In this document: positions 38,155 to 49,671 of the stretch, piece by piece | Position numbering within the stretch: position 1 is the stretch's first letter | Layout: the number at the start of each line of letters is the position of its first letter | NCBI RefSeq assembly: GCF_900104095.1 | Contig: NZ_FNJO01000004.1 | Location: 310,001 to 374,000 of the forward strand | Reading direction: 5' to 3' | Origin: Ralstonia sp. 25mfcol4.1 | Lineage (GTDB): Bacteria > Pseudomonadota > Gammaproteobacteria > Burkholderiales > Burkholderiaceae | Length of the DNA: 64,000 nucleotides | The notes under the pieces: model-generated | The model's input: only the letters and a program-made list of their open reading frames with translations | Databases searched by the model: none | Told to the model about the DNA's origin: nothing | Program-made: the position numbers and the translations under genes

Positions 38155-41100
38155 ATGGTTACGATGAACCGCCGACAGTTCCTGAAGTTCACGGGAGCGT
38201 CGCTGGCGGGGTCGAGTCTGGCGCTGATCGGGTTCACGCCCGACGTGGCGCTGGCGGAGGTGCGGGCGTACAAGCTGGCGCGCACCACCGAGACCCGCAA
38301 TACATGTCCCTACTGCTCGGTGGCGTGTGGGCTGCTGATGTACAGCCTTGGCGACAACGCCAAGAACGCAAAGGCCAGCATCATCCATATCGAGGGCGAC
38401 CCCGATCACCCGGTGAACCGCGGCACGCTGTGCCCCAAGGGGGCCGGACTGATCGACTTCATTCATAGTCCCAACCGCCTGCAATACCCCGAATACCGCG
38501 CGCCGGGCTCCGACAAGTGGCAGCGCATGACCTGGGACGACGCGCTGGACCGCATCGCCAGGCTCATGAAGCAGGACCGCGACGCCAACTTCATCGAGAA
38601 GAACGAGCAGGGCACCACGGTCAACCGCTGGCTAAGTACCGCGATGCTGGCGGCGTCCGCCAGCAGCAACGAGGTGGGCTACATCACGCACAAGACTGTC
38701 CGCAGTCTGGGCATGCTGGGATTCGACAACCAGGCACGTGTCTGACACGGCCCGACGGTGGCAGGTCTTGCCCCGACGTTTGGCCGTGGCGCGATGACGA
38801 ACCATTGGGTCGACATCAAGAACGCGGACGTCATCCTGATCATGGGCGGCAATGCCGCCGAGGCACACCCGTGCGGATTCAAGTGGGTCACCGAGGCCAA
38901 GGCGCACAACAAGGCGCGGCTGATCGTGGTGGACCCGCGCTTCACGCGGTCGGCATCGGTGGCGGACTACTACGTGCAGATCCGCACCGGCACGGACATC
39001 GTGTTCCTGGGCGGCGTGATCCGCTGGCTGCTGGAAAACGACAAGATCCAGCACGAGTACGTGAAGAACTACACGGACATGTCGTTCATCGTCCGCGAGG
39101 ACTACCAGTTCAAGGACGGCATCTTCTCGGGCTACGACGCCGAGAAGCGCCACTACCTCAAGGAGACCTGGGACTGGGAAACGGGCGACGACGGCTTCGT
39201 GAAGACCGACCCCACACTGGCCCATCCGCGCTGCGTCTACAACCTGCTGAAGGCCCACTACGCGCGCTATACGCCCGAGATGGTGGAACGCGTCTGCGGC
39301 ACGCCGCAGGACAAGTTCCTGAAGGTCTGCGAGATGATGGCCTCGACGGCCACGCCCGACCGCGCCATGACGATCATGTACGCGCTGGGCTGGACGCAGC
39401 ACTCGATCGGCTCCCAGATGATCCGCACCGGCGCCATGGTGCAGCTGCTGCTGGGCAATATCGGCATTGCCGGCGGCGGCATGAACGCGCTGCGCGGGCA
39501 CTCGAACATCCAGGGCCTGACCGACCTGGGCCTGATGACCAACCTGCTGCCGGGCTACCTGACGCTGCCGTCGGACCCCGAGGCGGACTACGACAAGTAC
39601 ATCGAGGCCCGCTCGTTCAAGCCGCTGCGGCCCAACCAGCTCAGCTACTGGCAGAACTACGGCAAGTTCCACGTGAGCCTGATGAAGGCCTGGTGGGGGC
39701 CGGCCGCCACCAGGGACAACAACTGGGCATTCGACTACCTGCCCAAGCTCGACAAGCCGTACGACATGCTGCAGGTGTTCGAGATGATGAACGCCGGGCG
39801 CATCAACGGCTACATCCTGCAGGGCTTCAACCCGCTGGCGGCGGCGCCCAACAAGGCCAAGCTGCTGAAGGGCCTGAGCCAGCTCAAGTTCATGGTGGTG
39901 ATGGACCCGCTGGCTACCGAGACCAGCGAATTCTGGCGAAATTACGGCGAATCGAACAACGTCGATTCGAAGTCGATCCAGACCGAGGTGTTCCGCCTGC
40001 CCACCACCTGCTTTGCCGAGGAAAACGGCGCGCTGGTCAATTCGTCGCGCTGGCTGCAATGGCACTGGCAGGGCGCCGATCCGCCGGGCGAGGCGCGCAG
40101 CGACATCGAGATCATGTCGGCGCTGTGGCTGCGCATTCGTGCGATGTACCAGAAGGAAGGCGGCAAGTATCCCGATCCGATCGTCAACCTGTGGTGGCCC
40201 TATGCGGTGCCGCACTCGCCCACGCCCGAGGAACTGGCCAAGGAATACTCCGGGAAGGCCCTGACCGACCTGGTGGACCCGAAGGACCCGACCAAGGTGG
40301 TGCGCAAGGCCGGCGAGCAGCTCAACAGCTTTGGCGAGCTGCAGGCCGACGGCAGCACCATGAGCGGCTGCTGGATCTACTGCGGGTCATGGACGCAGGC
40401 CGGCAACCAGATGGCCAAGCGCGACAACAGCGACCCCACCGGCATCGGCCAGAACCTGAACTGGTCGTGGGCCTGGCCGGCCAACCGCCGCGTGCTGTAC
40501 AACCGCGCATCGTGCGACGTGAGCGGCAAGCCGTTCAACCCGGCGCGCAAGCTGATCGCCTGGAACGGCAAGAGCTGGACCGGCTTCGACACGCCCGACT
40601 TCAAGCTCGACGAAGACCCGGCCAACGGCATGGGCCCGTTCATCATGCAGGCCGAAGGCGTGGCGCGGTTCTTTGCGCGGCAGACCATGGTGGAGGGGCC
40701 GTTCCCCGAGCACTACGAACCGTTCGAGAACCCGCTGGGCTACAACCCGCTCAACGGCAAGGACTCCAAGGTCATCAGCAACCCGGCGGCGCGCGTGTTC
40801 AAGGACGACTGGGCGCAGTTCGGCAAGCCCGATGCCTACCCGGTCATCGCCACCACGTATCGCCTGACCGAGCACTTCCACTACTGGACCAAGCACGCGC
40901 GCATCAACGCCATCCTGCAGCCGGAACAGTTCGTGGAAATTGGCGAGGAGCTTGCGAAGCAGGTAGGCGTCAAGGCCGGCGACCGCGTCAAGGTGACGTC
41001 GATGCGCGGCTACATCCGCGCCGTGGCGCTGGTGACCAAGCGGATCAAGCCGTTCCGGATCGACGGCAAGACCGTGCACATGGTGGGCATACCGCTGCAC

Positions 41101-41223
41101 TGGGGCTTCACCGGGCTGACCAAGCCGGGCTTCCTGGCCAACACGCTGACGCCGTTCGTGGGAGACGGCAACACCCAGACGCCCGAGTTCAAGTCGTTCA
41201 TGGTCAAGGTCGAACGGGCATAG
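38155..41223 (+). CDS. fdnG: formate dehydrogenase alpha subunit, selenocysteine-containing (UGA recoded)
   Basis: A 1022-residue protein when the in-frame TGA at 38743-38745 is read as selenocysteine 197 (context QARV-U-HGPTVA). It oxidises formate to CO2 in the periplasm using bis-MGD molybdenum or tungsten. The twin-arginine signal NRRQFLKFTGAS is followed by a [4Fe-4S] site (Cys51, 54, 58 and 93). C-terminal molybdopterin-binding sequence ends near IPLHWGFTGLTKPGF. E. coli FdnG has Sec at 196, so length and position agree. A SECIS hairpin follows the codon. GGAGG at an 8-base distance supports this start; the frame on each side of TGA would otherwise look like two genes. It is the first gene of the fdn-fdhE-sel cluster. 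Confidence 0.97.
38743..38775 (+). promoter_or_regulatory. bacterial SECIS element after the selenocysteine UGA
   Basis: After TGA (38743-38745) and ten bases, CGG-U-GGCA, loop GGUCU, UGCC-CCG folds at 38756-38775. The bulged U at 38759 and the GGUCU loop are the features SelB recognises in the E. coli fdhF and fdnG elements. Confidence 0.93.
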
Positions 41224-41232
41224 GAGACCGAC

Positions 41233-42207
41233 ATGGCACTACAGTCCCTGGATATCGTGCGCCGGTCGGCCACCACCACGCCGTCGCCCAGCGTGCGCGA
41301 GCCCGTGACGGGCAGTGTGGCCAAGCTGATCGACACCACCAAGTGCATCGGCTGCAAGGCCTGCCAGGCCGCGTGCATGGAGTGGAACGACCTGCGCGGC
41401 GATGTGGGCACCAACGTGGGCGTCTATGACAATCCGGCCGACCTGGACGAGCATACGTGGACGCTGATGCGGTTTTCCGAGTACGAAAACCCCAACGGCA
41501 ACCTCGAATGGCTGATCCGCAAGGACGGCTGCATGCACTGCGAGGACCCTGGCTGCCTGAAGGCCTGCCCCGCACCGGGCGCCATCGTGCAGTACGCGAA
41601 CGGCATCGTCGACTTCCACGAGGAAAACTGCATCGGCTGCGGCTATTGCATCACCGGCTGCCCGTTCAACATCCCGCGCATCTCCAAGCAGGACCACAAG
41701 GCCTACAAGTGCACGCTGTGCTCCGACCGCGTGGCCGTGGGCCAGGAGCCGGCCTGCGTGAAGACCTGCCCGACCGGCGCCATCGTGTTCGGCACCAAGA
41801 CGGACATGATCCAGCATGCCGAGGAACGCATCGTCGACCTGAAATCGCGCGGCTTCGAGAAGGCCGGCCTGTACAACCCGGCCGGGGTGTCGGGCACCCA
41901 CGTGATGTACGTGCTGCACCACGCCGACCAGCCGAGCCTGTACCACGGCCTGCCTGACGATCCGCATATCAGCCCGCTGGTGAGCCTGTGGAAGGGCCTG
42001 GCCAAGCCGCTGGCCGTGGCCGGCATGGCCATCGCGGCGCTGGCCGGCTTCTTCCACTACATCCGCGTGGGCCCGAACGAGACCGGCCCCGAGGACGAAG
42101 CGGCGGCCGAGGACGAGATCGTGCGCTGGGGCCGGGACAACCCCAGGCCGCGCGGCACGCCCGATGAAGTGGTGCCCCCCGAGGAGGTCCGCGATGAGAA
42201 TCGATAA
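41233..42207 (+). CDS. fdnH: formate dehydrogenase iron-sulfur (beta) subunit
   Basis: A 324-residue electron-transfer subunit. Four cysteine groups bind [4Fe-4S] clusters: [41 protein letters not shown] and [22 protein letters not shown]-terminal transmembrane helix (about 252-272, [20 protein letters not shown]) anchors it on the periplasmic side of the inner membrane. It takes electrons from the alpha subunit to the cytochrome subunit. It starts 9 bases after fdnG, and its end overlaps the start of fdnI. Confidence 0.96.
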
Positions 42208-42838
42208 GCGCCGCGAGGCAACCATCCGCCGCTACACCGCCGGCGAACGCAGCAACCACTGGATCGTCGCGCTGACGTTCGTGCTGCTGGCGCTGTCCGG
42301 GCTGGCATTGTTCCATCCGTCGATGTTCTGGATGAGCGCGCTGTTCGGCGGCGGCACCTGGACGCGCATCCTTCACCCGTTCCTGGGCGTGGTGATGTTC
42401 CTGGCCTTCCTGATCCTGGCCGTGAAGTTCTGGCATCACAACCTGATGACATGGAGCGACCGCGAATGGCTGCGCCACGGACGCGATGTACTGACCAACC
42501 ACGAGGAAAACCTGCCCGACGTGGGCCGCTACAACGCCGGCCAGAAGCTGCTGTTCTTCCTGATGGTGGGCTGCCTGGTGCTGTTGCTGCTGAGCGGCAT
42601 CGTCATCTGGCGCACCTACTTCTCGGCGTTCTTCCCGATCTGGGCCCTGCGGGTGGCGTCGGTCGTGCATGCCGTTTGCGCCTTCGCGCTGATTTGCGGC
42701 ATCATTGTCCACATCTATGCAGCCGTATGGGTCAAGGGTTCCGTGCAGGCCATGACGCGCGGAACGGTCACGCCCGGCTGGGCGTGGAAACATCATCGCA
42801 CCTGGTTCCGGGAGAACTTCCGGCCGGGCGACAAATAG
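42194..42838 (+). CDS. fdnI: formate dehydrogenase cytochrome b556 (gamma) subunit
   Basis: A 214-residue inner-membrane di-heme cytochrome with four helices (about 22-42, 55-75, 112-132 and 150-172). Histidines for heme lie in [31 protein letters not shown] and [20 protein letters not shown]. It passes electrons to the quinone pool. The ATG at 42194 has GAGGAGG upstream and overlaps the fdnH gene by 14 bases, so translation is coupled. Confidence 0.94.
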
Positions 42839-42897: not shown

Positions 42898-43863
42898 ATG
42901 GTGCAGCGCATTCTGGAGCCGGCGGAAATCGAATCGATCGACCACATCGCCATCGCGCGTGTGCGTCTGCCCGATCGCGCGGATGTGTTTGCCGCGCGGG
43001 CGCAGCGGCTACGCCAGCTGGCGCCGGGCAACCCGATCGGCCCGTACCTGCTGCTGATGGCCGCCGTGGCCGACGCGCAGCATGTGGTGGCGCAGTCGCT
43101 CGCCGGGTCTTCCGATCTCGCGCCCCTTTCCCCCGAAGCCATCCACCGCGCGGGCGAGCACTGCATGCCGCTGCTGCCCGCACAGGACGCCGGCGCGCCA
43201 CATGCCGCCGCCGCACTGTTCGGCCGGCTGGCTGACACCTGCCCCGAACTCGCGGCCCCGCTGGCCACTCTGCGTGCGATGCCGGCCGACGCGCTGGCCA
43301 ACGCCGTGCAGGAGCTGCTGGGACTGCGCCATGCCGGCGGCCGCCCCATCGACACCGCCACCGCGCCGCTGCTGATGGCGGCGCTGCAGCTGGACCGCAC
43401 CGTGCTGGCCAGCCAGCTGCGCGAGCAGGACATGCCGATGCTGGACGTCCACACGGTCTGCCCGGTCTGCGGCACGCCACCGGTGGCCAGCATCGTACGC
43501 ATCGGCGGGCGCTACCAGGGGCTGCGCTATCTGCACTGCGGCCTGTGCGCCACCGAATGGCACATGGTGCGCGTCAAGTGCAGCCATTGCGAAACCACCG
43601 AGGGCATCAGCTACTACGCCGTCGAAGGCCAGGGCGACGCGCTCAAGGCCGAGACCTGCGGCCAATGCCATCACTATCGCAAGATCGCCTACATGGAGAA
43701 GGATCCGATGGTCGAGCCGCTGGCCGACGACCTGGCCTCTCTGGCGCTTGACGTGATGATGGGCGAAGCCGGCTACGGCCGCGCCAACGGCAACCCGCTG
43801 CTATGGCTGGCCGATGACGAAGACGATGACGGCGGCGTGGAGATGCCGGAGGTGCGCGGATGA
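42898..43863 (+). CDS. fdhE: formate dehydrogenase accessory protein FdhE
   Basis: A 321-residue cytosolic maturation factor needed for active periplasmic formate dehydrogenases. The C-terminal half has the four rubredoxin-like cysteine pairs, [25 protein letters not shown] and CGQCHHYRK, that define FdhE. The N-terminal half is helical. AGGGG lies before the ATG, and the stop overlaps the selA start (ATGA at 43860-43863). Confidence 0.95.
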
Positions 43864-45299
43864 ACGACACCGTGTCGATGCCCGCCCGCCCCGCAGACAT
43901 TCCATCGGTCGACCGCGTGCTGCGGCTGCCCGGCCTGCAGCCGCTGCTGGAACGCTACGGCCGCACACCGGCCACCAGCGCGCTGCGCCGCCTGCTCGAC
44001 GCGCTGCGCGCCCAGGCCGTGGCCGGTCAGCTGGCGCGCCAGGCCATCGGCGACGACGCGCTGTGCGAAGCCCTGGCCGCGCAGCTGGCGCGCGACGCCC
44101 AGCCGCGCCTGCGCGCCGTGTTCAACCTGACCGGCACGGTGCTGCATACCAACCTCGGCCGCGCTCTGCTGCCCGACAGCGCCGTCCAGGCAGTCGTCCG
44201 TGCCATGACCACGCCGGCCAATCTCGAATTCGATCTGGACACGGGCGGCCGTGGCGACCGCGACGATCTGGTCGCCGATCTGCTGTGCGAACTGACCGGC
44301 GCGCAGGCCGCCACGGTGGTCAACAACAACGCGGCGGCCGTGCTGCTGATGCTCAACACGCTGGCGCAGCGGCGCGAGGTGGTGGTGTCGCGCGGCGAAC
44401 TGGTGGAAATCGGCGGCGCCTTCCGCATTCCCGATGTCATGCAGCGCGCCGGGGTCAAGCTGGTGGAGATCGGCACGACCAACCGCACGCATCCGCATGA
44501 CTACGCCGATGCCATTGGCGCGCGTACGGCGCTGCTGATGAAGGTGCATTGCAGCAACTACGAGATCACCGGCTTCACGCGCAGCGTGGAAGTGGCCGAC
44601 GTGGCGCGCATCGCGCAGCCGCTGGGCCTGCCCGTGGTGGTGGATCTGGGCAGCGGCACGCTGGGCGACCTCACCCAGTGGGGCCTGCCACGCGAGACCA
44701 CGGTGCGCGAGACCATCGCCGCAGGCGCGGACCTGGTCACGTTCAGCGGCGACAAACTGCTGGGCGGCCCCCAGGCCGGCCTGATCGTCGGACGTGCCGA
44801 CCTGGTCGCGAAGATCAAGAAGAACCCGCTCAAGCGCGCGCTGCGGGTGGGCAAGCTCACGCTCGCCGCGCTGGAGCCGGTGCTGCAGCTGTATCGCGAT
44901 CCGGACACGCTGGTGCAGTCGCTGCCCACGCTGCGCCTGCTGGCGCGGCCCGCCGGCGAGATGGCGGCCATGGCCGAGCGCCTGCGGCCCGTGGTCCAGG
45001 CGCCGCTGGGCGATGGCTGGCAGGTTTCGGCCGTTCCCATGGTCAGCCAGATCGGCAGCGGTGCGATGCCCGGCGGGCAACTGGCCAGCTTCGGGCTGGT
45101 CATCGGCCCGCGCGACGCCGGCAAGCGTACCGGCCGGCGTCTGCAGCAACTGGAAGCCGCGCTGCGCGCGCTGCCGCGCCCCGTGATCGGCCGCGTCAGC
45201 GAAGACGCGCTCTGGCTCGACCTGCGCTGCCTGGAAACCGCCGATGAAGTTGCGTTCTCGGCCCAGTGGCCCCTGCTGGCGGAGGCGCTGCGCTCATGA
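43860..45299 (+). CDS. selA: L-seryl-tRNA(Sec) selenium transferase
   Basis: A 479-residue PLP enzyme that turns Ser-tRNA(Sec) into Sec-tRNA(Sec) with selenophosphate. It shows [44 protein letters not shown] and the PLP-binding Lys299 in [18 protein letters not shown]. Length is close to the E. coli enzyme (463). It overlaps fdhE by four bases and selB by four bases, so all three are translationally coupled. Confidence 0.97.
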
Positions 45300-47221
45300 T
45301 CGTCGGCACGGCCGGACATATCGACCACGGCAAGACCACGCTGGTGCGCGCGCTGACCGGCGTCGATACCGATCGGCTCAAGGAAGAGAAGGCGCGCGGC
45401 ATCTCGATCGAACTCGGCTATGCCTATACGCCGCTGCCCGATGGCGACGTGCTGGGCTATATCGACGTGCCCGGTCACGAACGCCTGATTCATACGATGG
45501 CCGCCGGGGCCAGCGGCATCGACCTGGCCCTGCTGGTGGTGGCCGCCGATGATGGCGTCATGCCGCAGACGCGCGAGCACCTGACCATCGTCGAGCGACT
45601 TGGCGTGCCGCGCGCCGTGGTGGCACTGACGAAGGCCGACCGGGCCGACGCCACGCAACTGGCCAGCGTGCGCGGCGAGATCGAGGCACTGCTGGCGGGC
45701 ACTCCCTATGCTGGCGCCGACGTATTCCCGCTCAATGCCACCGACGATGCCGATCCCGGCGTCGCGGCGCTGCGCGCGTGGCTGCAGGACACCGCGCAGC
45801 ATACGCCCGCGCATGGCGCCGGCGGGTTGTTCCGTCTGGCGGTGGATCGCGTGTTCACGCTGGGCGGCCATGGCACTGTCGTCACCGGCACCGTGTTCGG
45901 CGGCCGGGTGGCGGTAGGCGATGTGATGCAGGTGGCGCCGTCGGGCCTGCCCGCGCGCGTGCGCAGCATCCACGCCCAGAACCGGCCGGCGGAGGCCGGC
46001 CTGGCGGGCCAGCGTTGCGCGCTGAACCTGGCCGGCATCGACAAGGCGGACATCCATCGCGGCGACTGGATCGTCGACCCCGCCTTGATGGCGCCGGTCA
46101 CGCGCATCGATGTCCGGCTCACGCTGCATCCGGGCGCCGGTTCCCGCATCGGCCACTGGTCGCCGCTGCACGTACATCTGGGCGCCGCGCATCGCATGGC
46201 CAATGCCGTGCTGCTTGACTGCGAAGCCCTGGAGCCAGGCGGCACCGCGCTGGCCCAGCTCGTGTTCGCCGCGCCGGTCTGCGCGGTGGCCGGCGACCAC
46301 TTCATCCTGCGCAATCCGCAGGCCACGCAGACGGTGGGCGGCGGCGTGGTGCTCGACAACGTGGCACCCGAGCGGCATCGACGTGCGCCCGGGCGTCTCG
46401 CCTGGCTGCTGGCAGTGGAGCAGATGCTCGGCGGCTGCGGCATCCTGCCGCTGCTGGACAATGCGCCGCACGGCGTGGCCGAGACCCGGCTGGTGCGCCT
46501 GACGGGCCTGCCGGCCAGCGCCATGACGTTGCCGCCTGCCGTTCTTCGCATCGGCGAGACGCTGATCCTGTCGCGCTATCTCGATGCGCTGCGCACCGGC
46601 GTGCTGGACACGCTGACGGCGTTCCATGCGCGCATGCCCGACGAACCCGGCCTGGGCGCCGGTTCGCTGCGCCGGGTGGCATTTGCCGGCGCGCCGATTC
46701 CCGACGCGCTGTGGTCCGCCTTGCTCGACACGCTGCTGCAGCAACGTGCCGTGGAACGGCATGGCGGATGGATGCGCCTGCCGGGCCATGCCATCACCTT
46801 CACCGATGCCGAACAGGCGCTGGGCGCCCAATTGCTGCCCCGGGTGGCGGCGGGGGGGTTCGACCCGCCCTGGGTGCGCGAGCATGCGGTGGCGCTGAAC
46901 GCGCCCGAGGAACAGGTCCGCCACGTGCTAGGCAAACTGGCGCGCCAGGGCACCGTGCATCAGGTGGTGCGCGACCTGTTCTATGCCGAAGCCGCCATCG
47001 AAACGCTGGCGCGGCTGTTCGGCACGATGGCCGCGGCGCAGGGTCATGTGGAAGTGATTGCGTTTCGCGATGCCGTGGGGCTGGGCCGCAAGCGCACGAT
47101 CCAGATTCTGGAGTTCTTCGATCGCGCGGGATACACTCGCCGCGTGGGCAATGCGCGCATGCTGCGCCCCGATAGTGAATGGCGTCCGCTGGCCACGCCT
47201 GCCCGGCCAGCGCCGTCATAG
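45296..47221 (+). CDS. selB: selenocysteine-specific translation elongation factor
   Basis: A 641-residue GTPase that delivers Sec-tRNA to ribosomes stopped at UGA by binding the SECIS hairpin. The G1 motif GHIDHGKT is at residues 7-14, then [19 protein letters not shown] and TKADRAD. Domains 2 and 3 follow, and the C-terminal 270 residues carry the winged helices that bind SECIS RNA (for example [20 protein letters not shown]). The ATG at 45296 overlaps the selA stop; an open extension upstream is not coding. The selC tRNA begins 9 bases after its stop. Confidence 0.97.
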
Positions 47222-47230
47222 ATCCGCAAG

Positions 47231-47326
47231 GGAAGGCATCCGTATCCGGTGATGCGGCCGGGCTTCAAACCCGGTTGGGGGCGCCAGACGTTCCCAGGTA
47301 GGTTCGACTCCTGCTGCTTTCCGCCA
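47231..47326 (+). tRNA. selC: tRNA-Sec, anticodon TCA (selC)
   Basis: A 96-nt tRNA with the oversized shape of bacterial selenocysteine tRNAs. The acceptor stem has eight pairs (GGAAGGCA with TGCTTTCC, one G-U) and a GCCA tail encoded at 47323-47326. The anticodon stem CCGGG (47258-47262) and CCCGG enclose loop CTTCAAA with anticodon TCA at 47265-47267. A long variable arm (about 47275-47299) and T-loop GGTTCGACTCC follow. It closely resembles E. coli selC and lies directly after selB. Confidence 0.96.
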
Positions 47327-47437
47327 TTCCTCTCCGGTTTCCCTCCGATTTCCCTGTTGCCACGCGCATGACCTACCATGCATAAGCAGCGGTTGGGCAT
47401 GTTTCGAGTCTCGAACTTCTCATCCAGAGGAATCATC

Positions 47438-48604
47438 ATGGACAGACGCGCATTCCTGCGGCTGGGTGCCGCAGTACCGGTTTCCATAGGCGCGGGCGTC
47501 GGCCCGGCATTCTCCGCCCCCTCCTCAGCCCCCTCCTCCCCCGCCGATCCGTATCCGGCCTCCGCCGGCTGGCGCGTCTACGAACTGACCACCGAAGTGC
47601 ACCTGCCGGCCGCCGCGGCGCCGGCCACGGTGTGGCTGCCCGTCCCCGCCCCGAACCTCGGCGACTATCAGCACACCGTATCGAACGAATGGATCGCACC
47701 CGGCGCGCGGGCCCGGGCAGCGCGCACCGGGCGCTACGGCGTGGACATGCTGGTCATCGACTGGCCCACCGCCACGCACGGCGCACCGCTGTCGGCGCGG
47801 CTCACCAGCACCGTGGCGCTGCGCGACCGCGATGTCGATCTTGGCACGGCACCGTCGCTCGAGTGGGCGCCGTCGGCACGGTCGGCGCGGTCGGCGCAAT
47901 CGGCTGAGTCCGCTGCGTCGCTGGCCGAGTATCGTCGGCCCACGCAGCTGATGCCCACCGATGGCATCGTGCGCGAGACAGCGCTGGGCATTACCGCCGG
48001 GCTGACCGACGACATGAGCCGCGCGCAGGCCATCTACCAGTGGGTGGTGGACCATACCTGCCGCGACGCCAGCGTACGCGGCTGCGGCACCGGCGACGTG
48101 GTGAGGATGCTGAAGACCGGCGGCGTCATGAATGGCAAGTGCGCGGACATCAACGGCCTGTTCGTGGCGTTGACGCGCGCGGTCGGCATCCCGGCGCGCG
48201 ATGCGTACGGCATCCGCGTGGACGATTCCCAGCGCGGCTTCCGCGCGCTCGGCAAGGCCGGCGACATCTCCAGGGCGCAGCATTGCCGGGCCGAGTTCCA
48301 TGCCGCGGGCTATGGATGGATTCCCGCCGATCCGGCCGATGTCCGCAAGGTGGCGCTCGAAGAGGTGCCAGGCGGCCTGCCGATGACGGACGGCAAGGTC
48401 CGGGCCGCCCGCGCGCTGCTGTTCGGCGCCTGGGAGGGCAACTGGGTCGCCTACAACCATGGCCACGACGTGCGTCTGCCCGACAGCGGCATGGCGCCGG
48501 TGCCCTTCCTGATGTATCCGCAGGCGAAGACCGTGGCGGGTACGCTGGACAGCCTCGACCCGGCCGCGTTCGGCTATCGCATCGCGTCGCGGAGGGTGGC
48601 CTGA
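47438..48604 (+). CDS. Tat-exported transglutaminase-like protein inside the sel operon
   Basis: A 388-residue protein with a twin-arginine signal (MDRRAFLRLGAAVPVSIGAG). An N-terminal beta domain (about 45-140) is followed by the transglutaminase-like fold (about 175-300). The catalytic triad is visible: Cys235 in NGKCADINGLFVALTRAVGI, His288 (or His282) in AEFHAAGYGWIP, and Asp298. GAGG lies before the ATG at 47438, chosen over an upstream in-frame ATG because it starts the Tat signal. The stop overlaps the selD start (TGATG). Residues 147-161 are a short Ser-Ala-rich repeat. A selenium role is unknown, although both this protein and the formate dehydrogenase use Tat export. Confidence 0.85.
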   Translation: MDRRAFLRLGAAVPVSIGAGVGPAFSAPSSAPSSPADPYPASAGWRVYELTTEVHLPAAAAPATVWLPVPAPNLGDYQHTVSNEWIAPGARARAARTGRYGVDMLVIDWPTATHGAPLSARLTSTVALRDRDVDLGTAPSLEWAPSARSARSAQSAESAASLAEYRRPTQLMPTDGIVRETALGITAGLTDDMSRAQAIYQWVVDHTCRDASVRGCGTGDVVRMLKTGGVMNGKCADINGLFVALTRAVGIPARDAYGIRVDDSQRGFRALGKAGDISRAQHCRAEFHAAGYGWIPADPADVRKVALEEVPGGLPMTDGKVRAARALLFGAWEGNWVAYNHGHDVRLPDSGMAPVPFLMYPQAKTVAGTLDSLDPAAFGYRIASRRVA

Positions 48605-49671
48605 TGACGACATCGATCGAACACAACGGCGGCGAAGTGCGCCTGACATCGCTGGCGCACGGCGGCGGCTGCGGCTGCAAGATCGCGCCGGGCGTGCTAG
48701 GCGACATCCTGCGCAACACCCGGCAGTTCCCGGCGCCGCCGGGGCTGCTGGTGGGCATCGAGACCAGCGATGACGCGGCGGTGTACCGGCTCAACGATAC
48801 GCAGGCGCTGGTGGCCACCACGGACTTCTTCATGCCCGTGGTGGACGACCCCTACGATTTCGGCCGCATCGCGGCCACCAATGCGATTTCCGATGTCTAT
48901 GCGATGGGCGGCACGCCAATCATGGCACTGGCGCTGGTGGGCATGCCCGTCGACAAGCTGTCGCCCGAGACCATCGGCAAGATCCTGGAAGGCGGCCAAT
49001 CGATCTGCGCCGAGGCCGGCATTCCGATTGCGGGCGGCCATTCGATCGACTCGGTCGAGCCGATCTATGGGCTGGTAGTGATGGGCCTGGTGCATCCCGA
49101 CCGCATCCGCCGCAATCGCGACGCGCAGGCCGGCGACGTGCTGGTACTGGGCAAGCCGCTGGGCGTGGGGGTCTATTCCGCCGCGATCAAGAAGGAATCG
49201 CTCGACGACTACGGCTACCGGCAGATGATCGCCAGCACCACGCAGCTCAACACACCGGGCAAGGCGCTTGGCGCGCTGGATGGCGTGCATGCGATCACCG
49301 ACGTGACCGGCTTTGGCCTGCTCGGCCATCTGCTGGAGGTTTGCCGTGGCAGCGGGCTGGGCGCCACGATCGACATGGCGCATGTGCCGCTGCTGCCCGG
49401 CGTGGCCGCGCTGGCGGAAGGGGGCGCAGTCACGGGCGCCTCGCGGCGCAACTGGGCCAGCTATGGCCATGACGTCACGGTCGATACCGGGGTGTCGCAC
49501 GTCCAGCAGGCGCTGCTGACGGACCCGCAGACCAGCGGAGGATTGCTGGTGTCTTGTGCGCCCGATGCCGTCGACGCGGTGCTGGGCATCTTCCGCAAGG
49601 AGGGATTCGGACACGCCGCCGTGGTGGGCGCGATGCATGCCGGGGCGCCGGGTGTGCGGGTGACCGCGTAA
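48604..49671 (+). CDS. selD: selenide, water dikinase (selenophosphate synthase)
   Basis: A 355-residue enzyme that makes selenophosphate from selenide and ATP, the selenium donor for SelA. The active-site region is HGGGCGCKIAPGVLG with the catalytic Cys in GGGCGCK (about residue 23), then TSDDAAVYRL, ATTDFFMPVVDDPYDFGRIA and TDPQTSGGLLVS. The ATG overlaps the transglutaminase stop. This closes the cluster of all four sel genes with their target enzyme. Confidence 0.97.
   Translation: MTTSIEHNGGEVRLTSLAHGGGCGCKIAPGVLGDILRNTRQFPAPPGLLVGIETSDDAAVYRLNDTQALVATTDFFMPVVDDPYDFGRIAATNAISDVYAMGGTPIMALALVGMPVDKLSPETIGKILEGGQSICAEAGIPIAGGHSIDSVEPIYGLVVMGLVHPDRIRRNRDAQAGDVLVLGKPLGVGVYSAAIKKESLDDYGYRQMIASTTQLNTPGKALGALDGVHAITDVTGFGLLGHLLEVCRGSGLGATIDMAHVPLLPGVAALAEGGAVTGASRRNWASYGHDVTVDTGVSHVQQALLTDPQTSGGLLVSCAPDAVDAVLGIFRKEGFGHAAVVGAMHAGAPGVRVTA

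What the first reader, a model, noticed from the sequence alone, without database searches (positions are those of the whole stretch)
38155..41223. In-frame UGA in fdnG recoded as selenocysteine 197
The frame continues through TGA with a textbook SECIS: GGUCU loop and bulged U at the right distance. Automatic annotation would split this into a truncated protein and an N-terminally shortened one.
Basis: partly seen in the sequence, partly recalled or inferred. Interest (0 to 1): 0.6.

Follow-up and report, generated by a model that had tools for sequence, protein, structure and literature searches.

The report
Ordinary selenocysteine formate dehydrogenase gene
The in-frame UGA in this bacterial formate dehydrogenase gene is a genuine selenocysteine codon with its hairpin signal and complete decoding machinery next door, but this is a well-known arrangement already described in many related bacteria.

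Summary
Window 38155-41223 (+) is one gene, fdnG (formate dehydrogenase-N alpha). Its only internal in-frame stop is UGA at codon 197 (38743-38745), followed by a SECIS hairpin (Rfam SECIS_3, 85.5 bits) with a GGUCU loop and bulged U17. E. coli FdnG aligns over its whole length, with its non-standard residue at the same place.

Everything needed to decode the UGA lies within 8.5 kb downstream: fdnH, fdnI, fdhE, selA, selB, tRNA-Sec and selD. Of 60 genomes of the genus, 15 pass the SECIS_3 cut-off; the same 15 have tRNA-Sec at 70 bits or more and the UGA-type gene. The best 80 of 594 named relatives all have TGA there. Across 93 UGA homologues the most constrained synonymous sites of the gene are exactly the SECIS.

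The interpretation (selenocysteine) is therefore supported. The aside that automatic annotation would split the gene is not generally true: E. coli K-12 and a Caballeronia record carry it as one CDS.

Nothing here is new: formate dehydrogenase alpha is the commonest bacterial selenoprotein, and its linkage to the sel genes is in print. The only odd observation lies elsewhere: two genus-mates keep an intact SelB but have no detectable SelA or tRNA-Sec.

The parts
38155..41223 (+). fdnG: formate dehydrogenase-N alpha subunit, 1022 aa with Sec197
   Evidence: TIGR01553 1499.9 bits against cut-off 814.2; E. coli FdnG 1kqf_A 1554 bits over residues 4-1022; single internal stop TGA
38743..38745 (+). 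UGA codon read as selenocysteine 197
   Evidence: aligned to X of E. coli FdnG; TGA in 80 of 80 named loci kept
38740..38798 (+). bacterial SECIS element; stem 38746-38788, bulged U 38759, GGUCU loop 38764-38768
   Evidence: Rfam RF01989 85.5 bits, E 6.6e-19; fold; lowest synonymous entropy in the gene
41233..42207 (+). fdnH: formate dehydrogenase beta subunit (Fe-S)
   Evidence: TIGR01582 461.3 bits, cut-off 334.7
42164..42838 (+). fdnI: formate dehydrogenase gamma subunit (cytochrome b); start probably 42194
   Evidence: TIGR01583 191.5 bits, cut-off 115.85, from residue 21; second ATG read
42898..43863 (+). fdhE: formate dehydrogenase accessory protein
   Evidence: TIGR01562 241.7 bits, cut-off 187.65
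43860..45299 (+). selA: L-seryl-tRNA(Sec) selenium transferase
   Evidence: TIGR00474 585.2 bits, cut-off 267.9
45266..47221 (+). selB: selenocysteine-specific elongation factor; start probably 45296
   Evidence: TIGR00475 428.3 bits, cut-off 242.25, from residue 11; C-terminal winged helices
47231..47322 (+). selC: tRNA-Sec, anticodon TCA
   Evidence: Rfam RF01852 72.5 bits, gathering 47; ARAGORN 47230-47326
47378..48604 (+). transglutaminase-like gene between selC and selD; role in the module not known
   Evidence: Pfam PF01841 72.9 bits
48640..49671 (+). selD: selenophosphate synthetase (core match 48640-49569; start lies somewhat upstream)
   Evidence: TIGR00476 443.6 bits, cut-off 125

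Best explanation
This is a standard selenocysteine-containing, probably Tat-exported formate dehydrogenase-N alpha subunit, encoded in a cluster with its own selenium machinery. SelD makes selenophosphate, SelA converts Ser-tRNA(Sec) to Sec-tRNA(Sec), and SelB-GTP carries it while its C-terminal winged helices hold the SECIS loop just 3' of the UGA. The ribosome thus inserts Sec at codon 197 instead of terminating. The Sec ligates Mo (or W) in the active site, and with FdnH and FdnI the enzyme oxidises formate and feeds the quinone pool. Shown here: the gene, the codon, the SECIS, the complete gene set and the evolutionary constraint. Inferred from the known E. coli system (recalled): decoding in vivo, metal ligation, localisation and activity.
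For: SECIS_3 85.5 bits and tRNA-Sec 72.5 bits (ARAGORN). FdnG, FdnH, FdnI, FdhE, SelA and SelB all above curated cut-offs; SelD 443.6 bits. PDB E. coli FdnG aligned end to end with X at the UGA. TGA at the site in 80 of 80 named loci kept (the best 80 of 594), while Cys-type FdnG of the genus (56-60% identical) have TGC or TGT there. In 60 genus genomes, SECIS above cut-off in 15, tRNA-Sec of 70 bits or more in the same 15, and UGA-type FdnG in the same 15 (one of them, G047, frameshifted). Among 93 UGA homologues the 12 lowest 15-codon windows of synonymous entropy all start at codons 195-206; codons 201-206 and 208 carry no synonymous variation among rows with the common amino acid, against a gene mean of 0.93 bits.
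Against: No expression, labelling or mass-spectrometry data. Folding energy of the hairpin alone is unremarkable (11 of 200 shuffles as good). The 80 named relatives are those most similar to the query, and at least two of the 93 rows probably duplicate others (L014/L102, L015/L105), so the counts are not independent.
Confidence: 0.98

Rival explanations
1. The UGA terminates: fdnG is a pseudogene or makes a 196-aa fragment, with the rest restarted at 38758.
For: Mechanical ORF calling gives exactly these two pieces.
Against: All sel genes and tRNA-Sec are adjacent and intact; the frame is conserved on both sides, TGA is universal in the near relatives, and SECIS codons are frozen.
Confidence: 0.01
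2. Sequencing error or recent mutation of a Cys codon (TGC or TGT to TGA).
For: Cys-type FdnG exists in the same genus.
Against: The same TGA plus SECIS occurs in 15 of 60 genus genomes and 80 of 80 named loci kept. Cys-type genes score at most 43.2 bits on the SECIS model (34.8-43.2 where listed).
Confidence: 0.003
3. UGA is read through as another residue, such as Cys or Trp, without selenium.
For: None found here; not directly testable by sequence (no call bears on it).
Against: Constraint on the SECIS and co-occurrence with tRNA-Sec and SECIS in exactly the same 15 genomes.
Confidence: 0.007

Closest known systems
Escherichia coli FdnG/FdnH/FdnI (formate dehydrogenase-N; PDB 1kqf)
   Same: Full-length alignment of the alpha subunit, non-standard residue at the same place, same fdnGHI order, SECIS at the same distance
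   Different: The E. coli fdnG SECIS has AGUCU where this one has GGUCU. In the E. coli record only fdnGHI lie in the stretch shown, whereas here fdhE, selA, selB, selC and selD follow directly.
fdnGHI-fdhE-selA-selB-selC clusters of Burkholderiales and relatives (e.g. Cupriavidus plantarum L014, Achromobacter, Burkholderia)
   Same: 68 of 80 named loci held show FdnH, FdnI, FdhE, SelA, SelB and an ARAGORN tRNA-Sec in the held DNA, counted by eye; of the other 12, several are short contigs
   Different: Position of selD varies (upstream, downstream or outside the held DNA); no difference of substance

Membership tests
Formate dehydrogenase-N alpha subunit (TIGR01553) | match above curated score over full length | tested here: met
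   1499.9 bits against 814.2, residues 4-1020
Formate dehydrogenase-N alpha subunit (TIGR01553) | Fe4S4, molybdopterin and dinucleotide-binding domains | tested here: met
   PF04879, PF00384, PF01568 above gathering scores
Formate dehydrogenase-N alpha subunit (TIGR01553) | Tat signal peptide | tested here: inconclusive
   NRRQFLKFTG near the N-terminus, but PF10518 scores 19.6 bits against a cut-off of 22.7
Bacterial SECIS (Rfam RF01989) | hairpin directly 3' of an in-frame UGA, above gathering score | tested here: met
   85.5 bits against 63; GGUCU loop and bulged U17
Bacterial selenocysteine decoding trait | selA, selB, selC and selD in the genome | tested here: met
   all four in the window
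Selenoprotein | selenium present in the protein | not testable with these tools
   needs 75Se labelling or mass spectrometry

The most novel reading that the evidence does not exclude
The most novel reading not excluded is that the whole cluster behaves as one selenium cassette that is gained or lost as a unit within the genus. It is present in 15 of 60 genomes; Cys-type FdnG stands instead in others and beside it in at least three (G004, G029, G045). Two genus-mates keep an isolated, intact-length SelB with no detectable SelA or tRNA-Sec, which might be a remnant or a repurposed factor.
Probability: 0.35. Interest if true: 0.25.

Novelty: already known. Interest (0 to 1): 0.06.

Why it matters
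It matters mainly for correct annotation: this genome encodes a functional-looking selenoprotein and the means to make it. It settles nothing open in the field, because formate dehydrogenase alpha is the most widespread bacterial selenoprotein (PMC5029168, passages read) and its close linkage to the sel genes is already described there (section 13).

Tried and rejected
Hairpin free energy as proof: weak (z -1.93), set aside in favour of the covariance model and codon constraint.

Missing tRNA-Sec in five relatives (L052, L061, L070, L075, L085): first looked like a variant decoding system. Genome-wide search found a tRNA-Sec of 61.8-71.3 bits elsewhere in each of the five genomes, so rejected. 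In L085 nothing tRNA-Sec-like lies behind selB.

A stop in a second FdnG-like gene (G029, L123) was checked as a possible UAG-recoded site: the residue at the Sec position is TGC and the TAG lies elsewhere, near query residue 293, so rejected as recoding.

Two genomes with SelB above cut-off but no UGA-type FdnG (G019, G038) were followed up: no SelA, no tRNA-Sec above 48.6 bits, SelD present. Left as an observation. The literature search for orphan SelB (phrases 'orphan selb', 'selb without sela', 'orphan seld', 'lack selc', 'loss of selenocysteine') had no occurrence of 'orphan selb' or 'selb without sela' in the 15 of 30 papers listed; this is not proof that none is in print.

Not tried: an empty-site comparison of the flanks or a tree of the cluster; structure prediction was not needed.

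Full report
What was checked. The stretch 38155-41223 (+) is one frame of 1023 codons with a single internal stop, TGA at codon 197 (38743-38745), and a final TAG. Reading TGA as Sec gives 1022 residues. This protein matches NCBIfam TIGR01553 (formate dehydrogenase-N alpha) with 1499.9 bits against a cut-off of 814.2, and PDB 1kqf (E. coli FdnG) with 1554 bits over residues 4-1022; the depositors' X falls exactly on the UGA. Nothing else in the window's own genome resembles it beyond general molybdopterin enzymes (next best 110.8 bits).

The SECIS. Rfam SECIS_3 matches 38740-38798 with 85.5 bits, E 6.6e-19. The predicted fold pairs 38746-38788 with GGUCU (38764-38768) as the loop and U 38759 bulged. 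The energy is only moderately low (11 of 200 shuffles as good). The stronger test is codon usage across relatives. In 93 UGA homologues (80 named loci plus 13 of the genus, with at least two probable duplicates) the mean synonymous entropy of the gene is 0.93 bits over 926 codons, and the 12 lowest 15-codon windows all start between codons 195 and 206. Codons 201-206 and 208 show no synonymous variation among rows with the common amino acid. In Cys-type FdnG of the same genus the same site is TGC or TGT, and where the SECIS model reports them at all they score only 34.8-43.2 bits (10 genomes), below its cut-off of 63.

The machinery. In the same direction follow fdnH, fdnI, fdhE, selA and selB (all above curated cut-offs), tRNA-Sec with anticodon TCA, a transglutaminase-like gene and selD (443.6 bits). 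The genome also has a tRNA 2-selenouridine synthase elsewhere (347 bits), so SelD probably serves two uses. Only one SECIS_3 match was found in the genome.

Co-occurrence. Of 60 genomes of the genus, 15 have a SECIS_3 above cut-off: G000, 001, 004, 006, 016, 022, 027, 028, 029, 030, 031, 035, 042, 045, 047. The same 15 have a tRNA-Sec of 70 bits or more and a UGA-type FdnG (G047 in frameshifted pieces). SelB passes its cut-off in 16: 14 of these 15 (G047's is split and its best piece falls just below) plus G019 and G038. Searches used stricter filters because over 40 genomes were searched. In 68 of these 80, FdnH, FdnI, FdhE, SelA, SelB and an ARAGORN tRNA-Sec lie in the held DNA (counted by eye); several of the other 12 are short contigs. 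For five of them (L052, L061, L070, L075, L085) a tRNA-Sec was found elsewhere in the genome. The named loci place the window nearest to Cupriavidus (86% to C. plantarum; a 97.4% match on a Cupriavidus sp. EM10 record).

Annotation. Mechanical ORF lists split the gene, but E. coli K-12 fdnG and the Caballeronia sp. SBC2 fdnG are each one CDS through a TGA.

Mechanism. SelA, SelB, SelC and SelD act as in E. coli (recalled; a summary was seen in passages of PMC5029168). Decoding, Mo or W ligation and export are inferred, not shown.

Literature. PMC5029168 (section 13 read, passages) reports formate dehydrogenase alpha as the most widespread selenoprotein (822 organisms), cites earlier reports of horizontal transfer of the Sec pathway between Pseudomonadales and Betaproteobacteria, and describes close linkage of sel genes with this gene as the only selenoprotein gene in most donors and recipients of recent transfers. 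PMC1273633 (passages) also shows conflict between sel trees and species trees for Burkholderia. Two further searches were made (listings only); passages of PMC3037878 on archaeal SelB-like proteins were seen.

Verdict. A correct reading of an ordinary, already known kind of gene.

Noticed in passing
L128:9956-11866 (G019) and L129:9721-11628 (G038): Two genus-mates carry a full-length SelB (397 and 402 bits, cut-off 242.25) without SelA and with no tRNA-Sec above 48.6 bits; SelD is present and their FdnG is the Cys type. In L128 the P-loop reads GHIHHGKTS instead of GHIDHGKTT. Remnant or repurposed factor.
   Followed up: partly
L123 (G029), near query residue 293: A Cys-type FdnG has an internal TAG in a genome that also has an intact UGA-type FdnG.
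   Followed up: partly
L126 and L130 (G047): fdnG is in frameshifted pieces, selB is split and selA matches only in part, in an otherwise similar cluster; sequencing errors or decay.
   Followed up: no
window 47378-48604: A transglutaminase-like gene sits between selC and selD; a relative lies in the held DNA of 9 of 80 named loci, in some in the opposite direction (counted by eye).
   Followed up: no
genus genomes: Rfam RF01852 passes its gathering score in 57 of 60 genomes, but only 15 score 70 bits or more; the rest cluster at about 47-49 bits and are probably tRNA-Ser (not checked).
   Followed up: partly
L085: A Janthinobacterium locus has fdnG, selA and selB but no tRNA-Sec behind selB, unlike its relatives; the genome's tRNA-Sec (67.9 bits) lies at another place.
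   Followed up: yes
L045: Candidatus Burkholderia verschuerenii keeps the TGA-type fdnG but shows no SelA match and only partial FdhE and SelB matches in the held DNA; possibly decaying.
   Followed up: no
L067:1962-2020: This SECIS has AGUCU in place of GGUCU, as E. coli fdnG does.
   Followed up: no
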